Translations under genes and position numbers: made by a program
The notes under the pieces: generated by a model
Told to the model about the DNA's origin: nothing
Database searches by the model: none
What the model saw: only the letters and a program-made list of their open reading frames with translations
In this document: positions 19,286-26,421 of the stretch, piece after piece
Layout of the letters: the number at the start of each line of letters is the position of its first letter
Numbering within the stretch: position 1 is the stretch's first letter
Assembly: GCF_000517125.1 (NCBI RefSeq)
Contig: NZ_KI912155.1
Span: forward strand, 3,598,029 to 3,662,028
Source: Arthrobacter sp. MA-N2
Lineage (GTDB): Bacteria; Actinomycetota; Actinomycetes; Actinomycetales; Micrococcaceae
Length of the DNA: 64,000 nt
Reading direction: 5' to 3'

Positions 19286-19342
19286 AAAAAAATGAGGCCC
19301 TACCCGGAACGTGAACTTGGTCCACGTTCCGGGTAAGGCCTC
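19286..19342 (-). terminator. Strong hairpin with minus-strand T-run, probable displaced tRNA-Ala terminator
   Basis: The arms TACCCGGAACGTG (19301-19313) and CACGTTCCGGGTA (19323-19335) are perfect, with a 9-base loop. They extend through one mismatch into GAGGCC/GGCCTC. On the minus strand the hairpin is followed by seven T (19286-19292). It therefore terminates minus-strand transcription, yet no conserved minus-strand gene ends here. It appears to be the original tRNA-Ala terminator, now separated from the tRNA by the island. It may also stop dnaE2 transcripts inefficiently. Confidence 0.8.
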
Positions 19343-19352
19343 CATGGTGGAG
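19334..19352. repeat. Left 19-bp direct repeat of the island (attL candidate)
   Basis: TAAGGCCTCCATGGTGGAG matches the copy at 26192-26210 at 18 of 19 positions (T versus G at position 12). It overlaps the right arm of the stranded terminator hairpin and contains the ATG of the HTH gene. Confidence 0.7.
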
Positions 19353-19778
19353 GTCTTACATACCTATTCGAAACAAAGTAGCGATTCCGTCAAACTTGGT
19401 TCCCTAATACGCAAGATCAAGGCTCGGCCAGCAGTGACGCGTGCCGCACCGCCTATCCCCCGCCGCTGCACCCAGCTTAGTGCTGAGCAGAGCCAGGAAG
19501 TGGTAGCTGACTACCAGACAGGTGCGCGAGTCAAGGAACTGGCTGTGAAGTATCGGATCAGCCGAGAGACCGTGAGTAAGCACCTACGCCGGCATGAGGT
19601 TACTCCGCGCAAGGTCGGTTTGGATGAACGGCAGATCAAGGAAGCTATCAGACTCTACGAACAAGGCGACTCACTGGCGACGATTGGTAAGCGGATGGGC
19701 GTGACCGCCCATACGGTGCGGTCACGGTTGGTTGAGGTTGGAGTGAGGATGCGGAGTTCGTACGAGCACTTGCTCTAG
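19344..19778 (+). CDS. Tandem helix-turn-helix protein at island left end
   Basis: The 144-residue protein has two successive HTH segments. The first is VADYQTGARVKELAVKYRIS with RETVSKHLRRH, and the second is KEAIRLYEQGDSLATIGKRM with TAHTVRSRLVE. They resemble the HTH regions of resolvase/invertase recombinases and transposase-associated proteins. ATG at 19344 lies inside the left direct repeat; a GTG at 19311 in frame would put the N-terminus inside the terminator hairpin and is unlikely. It converges with the ATPase gene with no gap. It could regulate or direct the island's recombination. Function unknown. Confidence 0.7.
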   Translation: MVEVLHTYSKQSSDSVKLGSLIRKIKARPAVTRAAPPIPRRCTQLSAEQSQEVVADYQTGARVKELAVKYRISRETVSKHLRRHEVTPRKVGLDERQIKEAIRLYEQGDSLATIGKRMGVTAHTVRSRLVEVGVRMRSSYEHLL

Positions 19779-22372
19779 CTACGAGCTAGTCTTCGACGCA
19801 TAGGCCTTGACGCGCTTGAGCCAGGCCTTAGCTCGTTCCAGTTCGGCCTTCATTTCAGCGTGTGTTGGCGCGGTGAAATTGACCTCCTCGCTCTTGTCGT
19901 GCCGTCGAGCCCATTTCGAAACCTGGCTATATCCCGCCTGAAATTCCCTATTATCGTCATCTGTGATCAAGGCAAGCATGCGCACCATTTTTGGCCTAAC
20001 CTCTGTAGTGCCCCGATCGACTACCTTGTTAACAACTTCTCCTCGAATGATTCGCTCCCAAGTCTCAGACAGCTGACCAGCCCAGTCGCTGACCAAGCGT
20101 TCGTAGTCTTCGACCGACTCTTCACCTTGGCGCTTCTTCAATTGGGCGAGGAGGCCGTCCAGGTCGTTTAGGCGCTTGGCGGCATCCTTTGCCTTCCAAG
20201 GGTGAGCCTCCAAGATCTTTCCGGGCACACCAGCGCCTGTTCTCGTGATACACCGCTCCACGAGCTGAACGCCCTCTTCTTCAGCCGCTTTGATCAGGTC
20301 GCCAAGGAAGGTCAGGTCGTGGGTGAATACGATCACCTGGCGATCAGTTGCAAGAGAGGCAATCTGCCTGGCGACGCGCTCACGTCGCCCGTGATCGAGG
20401 GAGGTAATTGGATCATCAAGGACAACTGCTGATTTCGATTCGTCGAGCCGGATTTCTGTGAAAAGGCCAGCAAGGCCGAGCGCGGTCTGCTGGCCTTCGC
20501 TTAGAACGTTTTCAACGGAAGCCCCTGACGCTGTTGCCCCGAGGAGCGCCGGTTTGTGCTTGAGCTTGCCCTTGTTACCGCCTTTGTCGCCAAGAACTAC
20601 TTGTTCCAGACCTAGGCGATCAGTCTCGCGCGTGAAGCGATCGCTGACCGTCGCCGTTACATAGGTCCGTGCGAGATCATTCGACTTTGTTGTCATCGGA
20701 CCCGTAGATAGTGATCTCCGTGCGGCCGAAATCCCAGCATGCCCCCGAAGCCGCTGCACTTCGGCCTTCAAAGCGTCCGCATGGCGATTTAGCTCGATGC
20801 GATCCGCGAGTTCATTCTTCGCATCCGTCGCCGCTTTAAGGCTCGTTCGGAACGCTGCATCGTTGATCTTGTTCGCCCGCTCGCGAATACCGGTCGCCAG
20901 CAATCGAAGCTGGTGCGTATCAACCGGGTTAAGTTCGACTGGCGATTCATTCGACTCACCCCGAAGTCTCTGCCCAATGCGCACCCGTGCGTCCTCGGCC
21001 TTCGCAAGAGCATCACTCAATCGGGTACCCAGTTTGCGGTCTTCGGTTGCAAGAAACGCCAACGCCTCGGTGGTCTTGCTGGTCGTTATGGCAATCTCGG
21101 AAATCTTGGAGGTCTCAGACTTTGCCTCTCGTTCCGCCTTTGCAGCCTTCTGAGCTGTCTTGTCGTGAACAAAGGCATGAAAGCGATGCAGTCGGTCTTG
21201 AGCATCGGAGGTCAATGGCTGATGACATAGAACGCAGTGGTCACTAGCTCCTGCCGCAGGAAAATCACGCTCCGGATACGCCTCCGTGACGGAATAGGAC
21301 TCCGCAGCCTCCCACAGCGCTCTCCACGTTTCAGAGCCAACACCGGGAAGGGGCTGATCCGCAAAGCTAGTCGTTGAAGCGAGTTCCGCCGCTCCTCGAA
21401 GCGTTCGAGCAGTCGAAGCATGGTCTCCACATGCAATGCTTGAGTGGCACTCAGGGTTCCGTCGATGTCGTCGAACCTGTCGGCAATCTGCTCTATCTGA
21501 GTAGCACCGGCCAAGAGACGGGCCTTCTCCTTCGTCGGGTCAGTGCTCTTCAGGCGAGCTTCTTCCTGAATCAGGTCAGCCAGTTGCTCTTCAGCGGTAC
21601 CCGCGATTGAAACACTAGCGTCAATGTCTGCATCGGTCGTCTTCGCAGACAACTTAGCGAGAAAAAGCTGAGCCTCTGTGCCTGGTGTTAGAGCCGGCAG
21701 CTTTACAGCGCGCGCAGCGTTCTCAGACAGCTTGATATCGACAGCTGCTCGCACCTGATCGGTTACGGCAATGAGTCGATCAAATAGATTCAAGGCAGAC
21801 GGTCGATAGGCAAGTTCCGTCTCCGTCGCAAGATAGTCATCGCCGCACGCCTCGTCATAGAAGTGAATCTGACGTAGGTCTAAGTCGGAAAGTGCCGGCC
21901 AGCCGCCCTCTCGCTCGTCGCCGTCAACCTCGTACGACAGCTTCGCCGCTTGGGACTGATTCGGCTTTGAAGAAAAGACGTTCGGCAGCACATCCTGATG
22001 ATGCCGAGCTCCAACAACTTCCTTGATCAGACGTGCGTAGCCCGACTTTCCACTGCCGTTATCACCGTAGATTGCAGTGAGTCCAGCCGCGCCAAAAGTA
22101 AGCATCTCCCCGGCGAGGATAGCGTTCACATTCTCAAGATGGCCGATCGATTTGAGAACAACGCGTGAGCCAGCACTAGAAGAACTCGGCAAATCCTTGA
22201 CAGTAAGTTCCCGCTCTACGTCGGTAACCTCGCCTATGACCACGCTTTCAGCGAAAGAGTCGATCCAACTTTGATCGACATTCTCACCGGCGACAATCTT
22301 GGCCGAAATGGCACGCTGCCACATCGGCCTGTCATTGACCCAATCGATAATTGCTTGTTCGAGTAATACCAT
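19779..22372 (-). pseudogene. AAA-type ATPase (RloC/AAA_13-like), interrupted by a frameshift
   Basis: Two overlapping minus-strand frames together encode one ATPase of about 860 residues. The 5' part has Walker A YGDNGSGKSG near residue 104. The 3' part has a CVLCHQPL zinc-hook-like motif, a long coiled coil, VLSEGQQTALGLA as signature, and Walker B VVLDDPITSLDHG with FTHD. The frames join near 21412-21422; a single-base loss there explains the shift, since the downstream frame is open and family-like from STARTLRGAAELAS onward. Start ATG 22372 has GGGGGAT upstream. It follows the PD-(D/E)XK gene by 67 bases. Sequencing error or programmed frameshifting are alternatives to decay. Confidence 0.75.
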
Positions 22373-22439
22373 CTGGCTACGATCCCCCATTTTTACACTA
22401 TTCTTTTGCTCAAAATATAACTGATTATAGCTTGACGCT

Positions 22440-23930
22440 CTACGCCTTTGAAGCTGATGGCTTATTGTCATTCCGCGCATCGATCACTATCACGGCCTCT
22501 TCCTTGCTCAAGTTCAGCGCCGTCAGTACTCTAGCGACCTTGCTTTGATCTGCCTCGGTGTAGCAGATGATCACCTTGACAGAACTACGTGTGCCGTTAG
22601 CCTTTTCGTAAATTTCGACCTGTTTCTCCAGGTTCCGCTTCAGGCTTGAACTCTTGGCCAGTTTGAACTCTATTAGCGACTTGTCCTTCGCTCCATAACT
22701 AACCTTGAAGTCGACCGGACCGCGCCCGTTGTTCGGCTCACGATTCACGTCAAAATCAGTCGCACACCATATCAGACCGAAGAATAGCTGAACTTCTTTC
22801 TCCTGTGACAGTCTCTGCGTGTCCCCGGACGGATTGATGAGTTGGTAGCCATCTTGGTTTTCGACGTAGTTCTTGAAATCAAGGACACGCGCCCGCGCTT
22901 CGTCATAACTCGACCAAGGCTTGTCGTAAAACTTGGTCTTCTCCGCGAGGTCTGGGATCAGCGTTCGAACTTGTGCGACCAGCGTGTCATAGGTGTTCTG
23001 AGTCTTCTCAGTACTCGTCGCTGCCGCTTCATCGCCGCGATCTTCCTTCTGTCGGATGTAGACATCGATGAGTTCCTTGAACTTTCCGATCGTTGCCTGC
23101 GCAGCTGCTGCACGCTCTTGCGCAGAAGGCTTATCGCCCATGCGTGACATGAAATACGCGTTGATTTGCCCGCGTAGAGAGTCGTCCTCAATGGCGCCCG
23201 GAAGATGGTCGAAAGTGTTGATCATATCCGAGTGATTGATCCAGGTTTCGTCTTTTGTAAGAAGGTCACTTGGCGTCAGCACGACAAATTCATTACCACG
23301 CCTCGGTAGATAGTACTTGATCGTCATCCAAGACTTGGTCTGGTAGTTGAACTTCGCTCGCGTTACAGAGAAGGTGTCACACAGGCTCGGATCGATATGC
23401 TTCCGCGCAAATGCCTGCGTATATTCCAGTAAATAATCCTTTATAAGGTTAGTTGTGAAATCACTAATACTATCCCGACCAACCCCAGGCTTAATAAGCG
23501 ACAGCTTTTCAAGGTGACTACCTTGAGTGATCTTCTCATTGCCGAAATCGTTAAGAATACTCCCCAGTGACGCATGCAAGGCCCGAGCGAAGTCATCACC
23601 AAGAGCGCGACCTCCATTTCCGAAGAGCGTAAACCCTAGCCAGTTCTCCTTCACTTCCTTGAATCTGTACCACGCCTTGATCAATCCCGGATCTAAGTCT
23701 GGCCTCGCGTTGTCCCTCAAAAACACGAGGTACTCGATGATCTGCTCATGAAGCTTTTGATACTCATCTCGCTCACTGTTGAACAGGAGGAACGGGTCAA
23801 TGAACAGTGGAAGGTCAGACACTACCGATATATCGAACGCTCCATAGTCATTTAGAACGTCAGAGGAGACACCGAAATATTCAGAAAAATAGAGGTTGCT
23901 TGCCGTAACGCCAGTATCATCGACTTTCAT
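22440..23930 (-). CDS. PD-(D/E)XK nuclease-like protein of unknown family
   Basis: This 496-residue protein has an uncharacterised N-terminal part (GAFDISVVSDLPLFIDPFLLF, residues about 30-50) and a coiled middle. The C-terminal half has GRGPVDFKVSYG (near 403) followed by SLIEFKLAKSS (near 418), which fits the PD-(D/E)XK nuclease core. Its ATG overlaps the stop of the SinR-like gene, and the ATPase gene follows. A nuclease beside an RloC-like ATPase is a frequent anti-phage arrangement, but I do not recognise this exact trio. Codon use is clearly more AT-rich than in neighbouring core genes, in line with transfer. Confidence 0.7.
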   Translation of the reverse strand: MKVDDTGVTASNLYFSEYFGVSSDVLNDYGAFDISVVSDLPLFIDPFLLFNSERDEYQKLHEQIIEYLVFLRDNARPDLDPGLIKAWYRFKEVKENWLGFTLFGNGGRALGDDFARALHASLGSILNDFGNEKITQGSHLEKLSLIKPGVGRDSISDFTTNLIKDYLLEYTQAFARKHIDPSLCDTFSVTRAKFNYQTKSWMTIKYYLPRRGNEFVVLTPSDLLTKDETWINHSDMINTFDHLPGAIEDDSLRGQINAYFMSRMGDKPSAQERAAAAQATIGKFKELIDVYIRQKEDRGDEAAATSTEKTQNTYDTLVAQVRTLIPDLAEKTKFYDKPWSSYDEARARVLDFKNYVENQDGYQLINPSGDTQRLSQEKEVQLFFGLIWCATDFDVNREPNNGRGPVDFKVSYGAKDKSLIEFKLAKSSSLKRNLEKQVEIYEKANGTRSSVKVIICYTEADQSKVARVLTALNLSKEEAVIVIDARNDNKPSASKA

Positions 23931-24199
23931 AGATTATTCTTGATCCACTTACTGCCACGCTCGGAAAACCCATACCACGCAGCCGCATCACCAGTCACAT
24001 TAATGACCAAGAGCTCGTCATTGCTGTCAATATGACCCTTTAGCTTATTGCGAACGTCTGCCGCAGACTCTTCCGTACGAATAAGCCACGTACTGTCCAG
24101 ATGATGCCAGTACGTACCGTAGCCCTTGGGCGCTGATATAAGCTCGTCGTAGTTCTGACCCGCCTTATTCAGGTCATAGCCAATAAGTATTGTGTTGAT
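23927..24199 (-). CDS. SinR-like small protein with Cas2-type fold, apparent ATC start
   Basis: A 90-codon frame reads INTILIGYDLNKAG, then YGTYWHHLDSTWLIRT, DSNDELLVINVTGDAAAWYG and GSKWIKNNL. This is the pattern of the small SinR family related in fold to Cas2. An in-frame TAG (24209-24211) lies just upstream and no ATG, GTG or TTG is available. The family start Met position is ATC at 24197-24199, with AGGGG six bases upstream. Either ATC initiates weakly or the start was lost by one mutation. The stop overlaps the ATG of the PD-(D/E)XK gene. The link to the Sporulation regulator SinR of Bacillus is in name only. Confidence 0.65.
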   Translation of the reverse strand: MNTILIGYDLNKAGQNYDELISAPKGYGTYWHHLDSTWLIRTEESAADVRNKLKGHIDSNDELLVINVTGDAAAWYGFSERGSKWIKNNL

Positions 24200-24767: not shown

Positions 24768-25040
24768 GCATCCCGTTTTCCTTACCGAGTTGTCATCGGA
24801 TTTTCCTCCCGGAGCGACGTTCAAGACTCCCAAGCCGTCGGAGATCGATGACGAAGGCTTCGGCAACTTTCGAGACGTCATTGATCTCCGCGGCACGACA
24901 GTCAAGGACGCTCGAACTTACCTAGCAGCACACAGGCGCGTGTTGGAATTCATAGATGCACTGGCGACCGCCCCAGACGCCTTCGATGAATATGCGCAGG
25001 CCTTCGAGGCCGGCAGTGCTGTGGGTGCGGGCTTGTCGGG
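24766..25040 (+). pseudogene. 5' fragment of an unknown gene, fused out of frame to recombinase remnant
   Basis: The first roughly 85 codons look genuine (FRDVIDLRGTTVKDARTYL, VLEFIDALATAPDAFDEYA). After about 25020-25040 the frame continues only as an out-of-frame shadow of recombinase sequence. This suggests a deletion junction that removed the 3' part of this gene and the 5' part of the recombinase gene. Function unknown. Confidence 0.4.
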
Positions 25041-26106
25041 AGGCGCCGCCGACCAAAAATCCGGCGCCCGCTCATCCGGCAAGCCTTTGAGCTCTACGCC
25101 ACCGGCAACTACACGTTCGCAGACCTCTCCGAAGCCATGGAAGACCACGGTCTCACCACCAAACCAAGCGCCAAGCGTCCGGCCAAGGCAATTGCCCCAA
25201 CACACTTCTCGAGGCTGCTGCGCGACCGCTACTACTGCGGAATCATCACCTTGGATGGTGTCGAACATCCCGGACGCCACGGAGCCCTCGTCCCCGACGA
25301 CCTGTTTCACAAAGTCCAGCAGTTACTGGACAGCCGCGGCGTTGCCGGGGAACGACGCCGCATCCACGACCACTACCTCAAGGGCACGCTCTACTGTGAC
25401 AACTGCCATAAACGGGGCATCGTCCACCGCATGGTCATCCAACGCTCGATAGGAAGGAGTGGCAACGAATACTTCTACTTCTTCTGCGCCGGACGAACAG
25501 TCAAGGACTGTTCAACCAGCCACATAAGCACCGCCAGACTCGAAGATGCCATGATCCGTGAATACGGCAAGCTCCGCTTCACACCGGACTTCATCGACCT
25601 CGCTCGAACCCGAATCCGCGAAGCCCTCCGCGAAAAAGAGACCGCCAATCTACTCCTTCAAAAGCAGCTGGCAGCCACACTGCAGGACTGCGACGCAAAA
25701 GAAGAGAACCTGCTCGATCTCGCCGCCGACGGCACGATAACCAAGGACAGGATCCGCACACGACTGACCGACATCGAGCGCCAGCGCACCAGGGTCCGCG
25801 AGCAGCTCGACAGCGTCGAATCCAATCTGGAAGCGGGAGCCCGCCATCTCGAAATCTATCTGGACCTACTGGCGGATCCGGAAGCCCTGTACCGGGCCGC
25901 CAGCGACCAGGAGCGCCGCCAGCTCAACCAAGCATTCTTCGTCAAAGTCTTGGTAGAAGACGAAGAAGTAACAGGGACATTCCTGGCCGAACCGGTTTCG
26001 ACGCTGGCTGCCGCTCACGCAGGCCACCAGGCCCTCCGAGCAGGAGCAAGCCGCCCGGACGCGCTGAGACGCGCACAGGCGCGCCACGCGGTCCACAGCG
26101 ACACAG

Positions 26107-26140
26107 AAAAGGGAACCACCAGATCTGGTGGTTCCCTTTT
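26107..26140. terminator. Perfect 34-bp palindromic bidirectional terminator
   Basis: AAAAGGGAACCACCAGA and its exact reverse complement abut, giving a 17-bp stem flanked by A and T runs. It can stop transcription in both directions: the recombinase remnant from the left and tRNA-Ala from the right. Confidence 0.85.
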
Positions 26141-26191
26141 GGTAACCGTTGAAAACTTACTCGACGGCATCCACGATGTCGATGGTTCGAA

Positions 26192-26210
26192 TAAGGCCTC
26201 CAGGGTGGAG
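26192..26210. repeat. Right 19-bp direct repeat of the island (attR candidate)
   Basis: TAAGGCCTCCAGGGTGGAG matches the left copy at 18 of 19 positions. Its last five bases are the 3' end of the tRNA-Ala gene, a classic integration position. Confidence 0.7.
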
Positions 26211-26278
26211 CTGAGGGGACTCGAACCCCTGACCCCCTGCATGCCATGCAGGTGCGCTACCAGCTGCGCCACAGCCCC
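26206..26278 (-). tRNA. tRNA-Ala (GGC)
   Basis: The 73-base cloverleaf has acceptor stem GGGGCTG/CAGCTCC, D-arm GCGCAGCTGGTAGCGC, anticodon arm CCTGC-ATGGCAT-GCAGG (anticodon GGC, reads GCC) and T-arm with TTCGAGT. The discriminator is A; CCA is not encoded. Its 3' end is the right boundary of the island. Confidence 0.95.
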
Positions 26279-26421
26279 ATATTCTTGCTGCTTCATGAAC
26301 CTCGCAAAGGCTTTGAAACCCAAGCTCGATTTCGGATTCCTCCGAAGCAACTCAAATATCTTAGAACAGCGTTTCTGAAAATTCCAAATCCGGCATATTC
26401 AGTTCTTTTACCGCTGTGAGG

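What the first reader, a model, noticed from the sequence alone, without database searches (positions are those of the whole stretch)
19779..24199. Candidate undescribed three-gene defence-like module: SinR/Cas2-fold protein, PD-(D/E)XK nuclease, AAA ATPase
Three co-directional, tightly spaced genes on a mobile island encode a 90-residue Cas2-fold SinR-like protein, a 496-residue protein with a C-terminal PD-(D/E)XK core and an unknown N-terminal domain, and an RloC/AAA_13-like ATPase with a zinc-hook-like CVLC. Nuclease plus SMC-like ATPase is a recurrent anti-phage design, but this trio does not match Septu, Lamassu, Gabija or PARIS as I know them. The defence role is inference from architecture and location.
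Basis: partly seen in the sequence, partly recalled or inferred. Interest (0 to 1): 0.75.

Follow-up and report, generated by a model that had tools for sequence, protein, structure and literature searches.

The report
DNA nuclease beside RloC-like ATPase
Three neighbouring genes on a bacterial genomic island are not a new three-part system: each usually occurs without the others, but two of them, a probable DNA-cutting enzyme and a relative of a known tRNA-cutting defence enzyme, recur as direct neighbours, and here two of the three genes look damaged.

Summary
The three genes are real and co-directional on the minus strand, but not a conserved three-gene system.

(1) SinR-like gene (23927-24199): Cas2/VapD-type fold; no partner shared by more than 3 of 26 loci; here ATC stands where relatives start.

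(2) Nuclease 'M' (22440-23930): C-terminal PD-(D/E)XK core behind an N-terminal domain of unassigned fold. Its N-terminal half matches PADLOC candidate PDC-M36A. Widespread (318 relatives in one scan), often beside restriction genes.

(3) ATPase: matches PADLOC candidate PDC-S06. Relatives show RloC's published hallmarks (ABC ATPase, CxxC hook, Arg-x3-Glu-x36-52-His); the window's own clade has Ser for Arg, and the gene is frameshifted.

SinR was found in 0 of 115 other M loci (duplicates included). An RloC-like ATPase directly adjoins M in 5 of the 115: three non-duplicate cases besides the window, probably two or three origins, in both gene orders. From the ATPase side, 0 of 16 loci have M.

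Best reading: M and the RloC-like gene are separate defence modules that repeatedly pair, perhaps as DNA cleavage backed by translation arrest; the SinR gene is a passenger. The copy here is probably inactive.

The parts
23927..24199 (-). SinR-like gene, 90 aa, Cas2/VapD-type ferredoxin fold; D9 and S36-T37 of DST (35-37) conserved; start position is ATC; its TGA overlaps the ATG of M
22440..23930 (-). Gene M, 496 aa: N-terminal domain of unassigned fold (invariant D39, D45-P46, D153, S156-D157 in 82 sequences) and C-terminal PD-(D/E)XK nuclease core
22443..22811 (-). PD-(D/E)XK core of M, residues 374-496; E377, D407, E421-x-K423, Q437 invariant in 82 sequences
21212..22480 (-). RloC-like ATPase, first frame (probable start ATG 22372); Walker A GDNGSGKS at 22066-22043
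19779..21539 (-). RloC-like ATPase, second frame (change of frame at about 21440-21380): zinc hook CVLC 21236-21225, ABC signature LSEGQ, Walker B, C-terminal motif with Ser in place of Arg (20069-20067), Glu (20057-20055), His (19901-19899)
24990..26378 (+). Probable remnant of a large serine recombinase: weak, sub-cut-off matches to Recombinase (0.0012) and recombinase zinc ribbon (0.001); no resolvase catalytic domain among the matches
26203..26279 (-). tRNA-Ala(ggc) at the right edge of the variable region; its twin lies just left of the window

Best explanation
This is a piece of a defence-type island in which three separately mobile genes have landed in one co-directional row. The SinR-like gene is a solitary Cas2-fold gene that happens to sit upstream. 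M is a DNA-cleaving PD-(D/E)XK enzyme with an N-terminal domain that probably senses or binds something. The ATPase is an RloC-like ABC protein whose relatives carry the motif of an anticodon nuclease. M and RloC-like proteins are modules that usually occur without each other but repeatedly become direct neighbours. The most likely working of an intact pair is two-tiered, like PrrC beside its restriction enzyme: M cuts invading DNA, and the RloC-like protein, sensing DNA ends or the failure of M, cuts tRNA and stops translation. Shown here: the genes, motifs and predicted folds, recurrence of the neighbour pair, absence of the trio in the loci examined, and damage to the copy in the window. 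Inferred: DNA cleavage by M, tRNA cleavage by intact relatives, any functional coupling, and the anti-phage role.
For: No trio elsewhere: SinR in 0 of 86 M loci, 0 of 20, 0 of 9 and 0 of 16 ATPase loci; M or ATPase in 0 of 26 SinR loci. SinR without a general partner in plasmids and temperate phages. M beside restriction genes: of 46 co-directional upstream neighbours within 150 nt (from 86 loci), 7 match a PADLOC type III restriction-enzyme profile and 5 a type I specificity profile (Pfam RE_endonuc in 5, Methylase_S in 5). RloC hallmarks: CxxC in 14 of 14 aligned PDC-S06-type sequences and Arg-x3-Glu-x48-52-His in 11 of 14, against the published Arg-x3-Glu-x36-52-His (PMC2610378, passages). 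Recurrent pair: L086/L087 and L091 (M then ATPase), L221 (ATPase then M), same strand, at most 35 nt apart. On a quick M tree the label needs four changes, forced by starred branches. In the 86 loci two ATPase profiles hit only those three loci, each time directly after M. M fold.
Against: Most M loci lack the ATPase (5 of 115 have it, three non-duplicate) and 0 of 16 ATPase loci sampled from the other side have M, so the pairing may be only clustering in defence islands. L086/L087 and L091 share an ATPase subfamily (70% identical) and a supported M clade and may be one pairing, so the separate origins besides the window may be two. The label is only weakly clustered on the tree and losses cannot be told from gains. 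The subfamily of L086/L091 was first seen by scanning direct neighbours only; flanks were then searched with two home-made profiles, which may miss other subfamilies. M's neighbour place also holds other genes, such as a HerA-type ATPase in L090. The window clade has Ser for the Arg that is essential in G. kaustophilus RloC. The two RloC-like subfamilies align by profile only up to the start of the C-terminal region. The M fold has no Foldseek match at E 0.001 or better. No activity was tested.
Confidence: 0.47

Rival explanations
1. Three independent solo genes: M and the RloC-like gene are complete single-gene defences, and their adjacency only reflects crowding of defence genes in islands.
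For: 0 of 16 ATPase-family loci have M; most M loci examined have other neighbours, including type I and III restriction genes, a HerA-type ATPase, and Septu genes in L020; the eight plasmid copies of the ATPase that were fetched have varied neighbours, among them Qat or restriction-modification genes in some (L246 carries no annotation).
Against: In the 86 M loci every hit of the two ATPase profiles was directly next to M, on the same strand and close by, with a further case in reversed order. A rough hand estimate from the gene counts of those loci (9, 17 and 24 genes) puts the chance that the ATPase genes in such loci all fall beside M, co-directional, between about 3e-4 (three independent cases) and 5e-3 (two).
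Confidence: 0.33
2. The ATPase of this clade is no longer a tRNA cutter but a DNA-end sensor or motor that controls M, a nuclease-ATPase design like Septu or SbcCD.
For: Ser replaces the Arg of the anticodon-nuclease motif in the window and its two closest relatives L037 and L067 (3 of 14 sequences); zinc hook and ATPase motifs are kept in 8 relatives.
Against: L221 keeps the full motif and adjoins M; L086 and L091 also have an Arg-x3-Glu-x37-His stretch by pattern. L037 and L067, which share the Ser, show no M next to them (L037 is a 4.3 kb contig).
Confidence: 0.15
3. The three genes form one undescribed three-gene defence system.
For: Co-directional, ATGA overlap between SinR and M, short gap before the ATPase.
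Against: SinR absent from every other M or ATPase locus examined and M and ATPase absent from every SinR locus examined.
Confidence: 0.05

Closest known systems
RloC (ABC ATPase with zinc hook and anticodon nuclease; PMC2610378, abstract and passages seen)
   Same: ABC ATPase split by a CxxC insert; Glu-x48-52-His at the C-terminal end, with Arg-x3 before it in 11 of 14 aligned sequences.
   Different: The window clade has Ser for the catalytic Arg; the window gene is frameshifted; activity unknown; a nuclease such as M as neighbour is not mentioned in the passages seen.
PADLOC candidates PDC-S06 and PDC-M36A
   Same: ATPase frames match PDC-S06 at 1.9e-59 and 6.6e-113; M residues 32-239 match PDC-M36A at 9.5e-18.
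   Different: M matches only about half of the PDC-M36A profile; these are listed as candidates; no paper in the library holds the term PDC-M36.
PrrC with its type Ic restriction enzyme (PMC3710099, passages seen)
   Same: An anticodon-nuclease-type ABC protein encoded next to a DNA-cutting defence enzyme.
   Different: Here the neighbour is a single PD-(D/E)XK protein; guarding of the ATPase by M is only a proposal.
Cas2/VapD-type nucleases, BPSL1038 (7vxr; PMC10491678, abstract and passages)
   Same: Best Foldseek match, E 1.2e-3, TM 0.72 by query length; conserved early Asp.
   Different: Reads D-x25-DST, not D-x20-SST; no believable sequence match to solved structures; no link to CRISPR seen.

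Membership tests
RloC | ABC ATPase motifs split by a CxxC zinc-hook insert | tested here: met
   Walker A in one frame, CVLC, signature and Walker B in the other; CxxC in 14 of 14 aligned sequences
RloC | C-terminal Arg-x3-Glu-x36-52-His | tested here: not met
   Window reads Ser-x3-Glu-x51-His; Arg is present in 11 of 14 aligned sequences. Hence called RloC-like, not filed as RloC
RloC | Intact reading frame | tested here: not met
   Two frames, 22480-21212 and 21539-19779; sequencing or assembly error not excluded
RloC | Anticodon nuclease activity | not testable with these tools
   -
PD-(D/E)XK nuclease superfamily (M) | Fold with E, D, E-x-K signature | tested here: met
   E377, D407, E421-x-K423 invariant in 82 sequences; model pLDDT 88.4; BamHI heads the structural list, Z 6.5 over 139 residues, rmsd 4.7, with other nucleases of this fold below it. 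Z under 8 is middling and Foldseek had nothing at E 0.001, so the sequence motif carries the claim
PADLOC PDC-M36A | Full-length profile match | tested here: not met
   Residues 32-239 only, profile 23-224 of 457, E 9.5e-18
PADLOC PDC-S06 | Profile match along the protein | tested here: met
   The two frames together cover positions 5-854 of 858 of PDLC04891
Cas2/VapD-like nuclease fold (SinR-like) | Ferredoxin-like fold with early catalytic Asp | tested here: met
   Model pLDDT 86.1; Foldseek top rows BPSL1038 and Cas2, probability 1.00, E 1e-3 to 1e-2; D9 invariant in 10 sequences
BPSL1038 subfamily | D-x20-SST motif | tested here: not met
   D9-x25-DST
Septu / Lamassu / Gabija / PARIS | Component profile as best match | tested here: not met
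   PADLOC best matches are PDC-S06 and PDC-M36A; LmuB 3.3e-8, AriA 4.5e-6 and PtuA 0.007 for the ATPase frames are far weaker; no Gabija profile among the listed matches

The most novel reading that the evidence does not exclude
M and RloC-like ATPases form a two-component defence in which a single-protein PD-(D/E)XK nuclease with a new N-terminal sensor domain takes the place of the restriction enzyme that guards PrrC: M cuts DNA first, and its loss or the DNA ends it releases unleash a tRNA-cutting ATPase. The pairing would have arisen more than once in actinobacteria.
Probability: 0.2. Interest if true: 0.65.

Novelty: new variant of a known kind. Interest (0 to 1): 0.4.

Why it matters
It replaces a supposed three-gene system by a sharper, testable statement: a widespread nuclease family (M), for which no paper was found under its PADLOC name, that keeps company with restriction genes and repeatedly adjoins RloC-like ATPases. 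If the pair works together it would show a simple form of the PrrC strategy (DNA attack backed by tRNA cutting). If not, M is still a common untested restriction-island nuclease. The Arg-to-Ser clade of RloC-like proteins is a natural test of whether the ATPase has a role beyond tRNA cutting.

Tried and rejected
Three-gene unit: rejected (see counts). M in viral contigs: one scan with the window protein found none; the alignment found 6. ATPase in viral contigs: none by one scan. M by sequence in solved structures: two weak matches, E 0.07 and 0.12, not believed. N-terminal domain of M: no Foldseek match at E 0.001 for the whole model; VIA-align rows are mostly on the C-terminal core; the domain was not folded alone, so a known fold is not excluded. 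A first search of M loci with the window's ATPase pieces by phmmer found nothing and my notes then said 'no ATPase'; the PADLOC scan and profiles later found three loci, so that note was wrong. Programmed frameshifting: no slippery heptamer seen by eye in the junction region; not tested further. Literature: no paper in the library holds 'PDC-M36'; the listings of searches (no paper) show no title or abstract start on a SinR-M-ATPase trio or an M-RloC pair; most of those papers were not opened, and preprints are not held.

Limits of the counts: of 318 M relatives only the best 80 were kept, plus 6 viral; many loci end at a contig end. A further 20 loci (9 plasmid, 11 whole-genome, L017-L036; L021, L032 and L036 hold only partial or fragmentary M) were searched and 9 regions. 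In one search, 13 of 398 genomes had M: regions of 8 were fetched (G658 twice), G382 and G336 had been fetched before, and G427, G525 and G760 were not fetched; of the 12 class genomes, G163 was not. Known duplicates: L219 is the same contig as L086, L087 has M and ATPase identical to L086, L026 and L089 are the same contig. ATPase loci L037 and L039 are contigs under 4.4 kb with little flank; the weaker ATPase loci L069 and L070 were left out of the 16. Neighbours of the more distant M loci: 66 listed, 47 scanned.
Full report
What is there. On the minus strand lie, in order, a 90-codon SinR-like frame (24199-23927), gene M (23930-22440, 496 aa) and an ATPase gene (about 22372-19779). The first two overlap as ATGA; M's stop and the likely ATPase start are 67 nt apart. 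The SinR-like frame has no standard start: ATC stands where relatives begin. The ATPase is split in two frames that overlap between 21539 and 21212; by alignment, judged by eye, the change of frame falls at about 21440-21380. Whether this is a mutation or an assembly error cannot be told here. The stretch lies between two tRNA-Ala(ggc) genes that are about 26.6 kb apart in this genome and at most about 1.1 kb apart in 9 of 10 other genomes of the genus, the tenth having them on separate contigs (four relatives checked with ARAGORN). So it is a variable region; whether its genes lie elsewhere in the relatives was not tested. A probable serine-recombinase remnant, with weak matches only, lies at 24990-26378.

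SinR-like protein. The AlphaFold2 model (10 sequences, pLDDT 86.1) matches BPSL1038 and many Cas2 structures by fold (probability 1.00, best E 1.2e-3, none at 1e-3 or better); Pfam Cas2 is only E 0.15. BPSL1038 is a reported DNase with a D-x20-SST motif (PMC10491678, abstract and passages); the present family reads D-x25-DST. It occurs in 82 of 72,556 plasmid records, 51 of 50,697 phage records (annotated 'sinR-like' in phiFL1A) and 17 of 394 genomes of the class. In 26 loci with flanks no neighbour family is shared by more than 3 loci, and neither M nor the ATPase occurs. Three of the 394 class genomes, the own one included, have both SinR and M (G000, G134, G159); in G159 the two lie on different contigs and in G134 about 2 Mb apart.

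M. The C-terminal part has invariant E377, D407, E421-x-K423 (82 sequences), and the model (pLDDT 88.4, pTM 0.81) places it among PD-(D/E)XK folds: BamHI Z 6.5, Shedu nuclease domain 5.4, McrBC complex chain 5.4. These Z values are middling and Foldseek gave nothing at E 0.001, so the motif carries the assignment. The N-terminal domain has invariant D39, D45-P46, D153 and S156-D157 and matches PADLOC PDC-M36A (9.5e-18, residues 32-239). M occurs in 12 of 394 class genomes and 13 of 398 genomes of another family of the order; the species-wide collection gave 318 relatives by pattern, the best 80 ranging from actinobacteria to Patescibacteria. Of 46 co-directional upstream neighbours within 150 nt, 7 match a type III restriction-enzyme profile and 5 a type I specificity profile (Pfam). 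Five actinobacterial loci (L086, L088, L090, L091, L220) have M directly after a type III restriction subunit, with a DNA methylase before that in L091 and L220. Other M loci sit beside Septu genes (L020), a type IIG enzyme and others.

ATPase. Both frames match PADLOC PDC-S06 (1.9e-59 and 6.6e-113). In 14 aligned sequences, the window included, all have a CxxC hook and a Glu-x48-52-His pair, and 11 have the Arg four places before the Glu; the window, L037 and L067 have Ser there. RloC is described in print by Arg-x3-Glu-x36-52-His, a CxxC hook and the ABC motifs, and changing any of the three residues to Ala abolished the activity of G. kaustophilus RloC (PMC2610378, passages). So the protein is RloC-like, of a clade that lacks the Arg. 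An intact relative, also with Ser, lies on another contig of the same genome (L067). Strong matches are rare: profile PDLC04891 hits at E 1e-80 or better in 4 of 394 genomes, the own genome included (73 of 394 at 0.001, mostly short stretches), and PDLC04890 at 1e-30 or better in 4 of 394.

Does the trio recur? Not in what was examined. SinR was found in 0 of 86, 0 of 20 and 0 of 9 M loci and in 0 of 16 ATPase loci. The pair M plus RloC-like ATPase does recur: L086 and L087 (identical M and ATPase, so one case), L091, and L221. In the first two cases the ATPase follows M, in L221 it precedes it, always on the same strand and at most 35 nt apart. L086, L087 and L091 carry another PDC-S06 subfamily (PDLC04890), L221 one closer to the window's. 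In total 5 of 115 M loci have it (3 of 86, 0 of 20, 2 of 9), which is three cases after removing duplicates. L086/L087 and L091 lie in one M clade and their ATPases are 70% identical, so the origins besides the window may be two. On the quick M tree the label needs four changes, all forced by starred branches; gains cannot be told from losses and the clustering is weak (34 of 500 shuffles as low). In the 86 loci two ATPase profiles hit nothing else in the flanks, though one was built from these loci and other subfamilies could be missed. Against the pairing, 0 of 16 loci chosen by the ATPase contain M, and in sister type III loci the place after M is taken by a HerA-type ATPase (L090) or by no co-directional gene (L088, L220).

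How it may work. From the motifs, M should cut DNA. RloC is reported as a zinc-responsive tRNA cutter proposed to respond to DNA damage, and PrrC as a tRNA cutter held silent by its restriction enzyme (PMC3710099, passages). RloC is counted among anti-phage systems, as 'not tested' in one recent survey (PMC12322248, passages). An intact M plus RloC-like pair may therefore combine DNA attack with translation arrest. That coupling is inference. The copy in the window has a frameshifted ATPase, a doubtful SinR start and the Ser substitution, and is probably not a working pair.

Verdict. Not a new three-gene system; two candidate or known defence families and a Cas2-fold passenger. The repeated M-ATPase pairing is the part worth following.

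Noticed in passing
window 1-26203: The region between two tRNA-Ala(ggc) genes is about 26.6 kb here and at most about 1.1 kb in 9 of 10 same-genus genomes; by look of the sequence it also holds ABC transporter genes and imuB/dnaE2-type genes.
   Followed up: partly
L067:9861-12515 (own genome, contig 3): Intact second copy of the RloC-like ATPase, also with Ser in place of Arg; 11 kb away on the same contig is a fragment of an M-like N-terminal domain (L036:7504-8214), two genes before a DnaE-type polymerase.
   Followed up: partly
L086, L088, L090, L091, L220: Type III restriction loci with M directly after the restriction subunit, followed by a variable ATPase (RloC-like or HerA-type) or no co-directional gene.
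   Followed up: partly
window 19294-19342: Inverted repeat with 23-nt arms (91% complementary, 3 nt between) just after the dnaE2-like gene, overlapping the start of the HTH gene 19311-19778; could be a terminator or an operator.
   Followed up: no
L081:22-7608 (Roseibium plasmid): RloC-like ATPase directly after genes annotated as DNA repair exonuclease and AAA ATPase, and beside a Qat system.
   Followed up: no
L101:11530-12984: Protein joining a PIN-like domain and an Mrr restriction domain directly after M.
   Followed up: no
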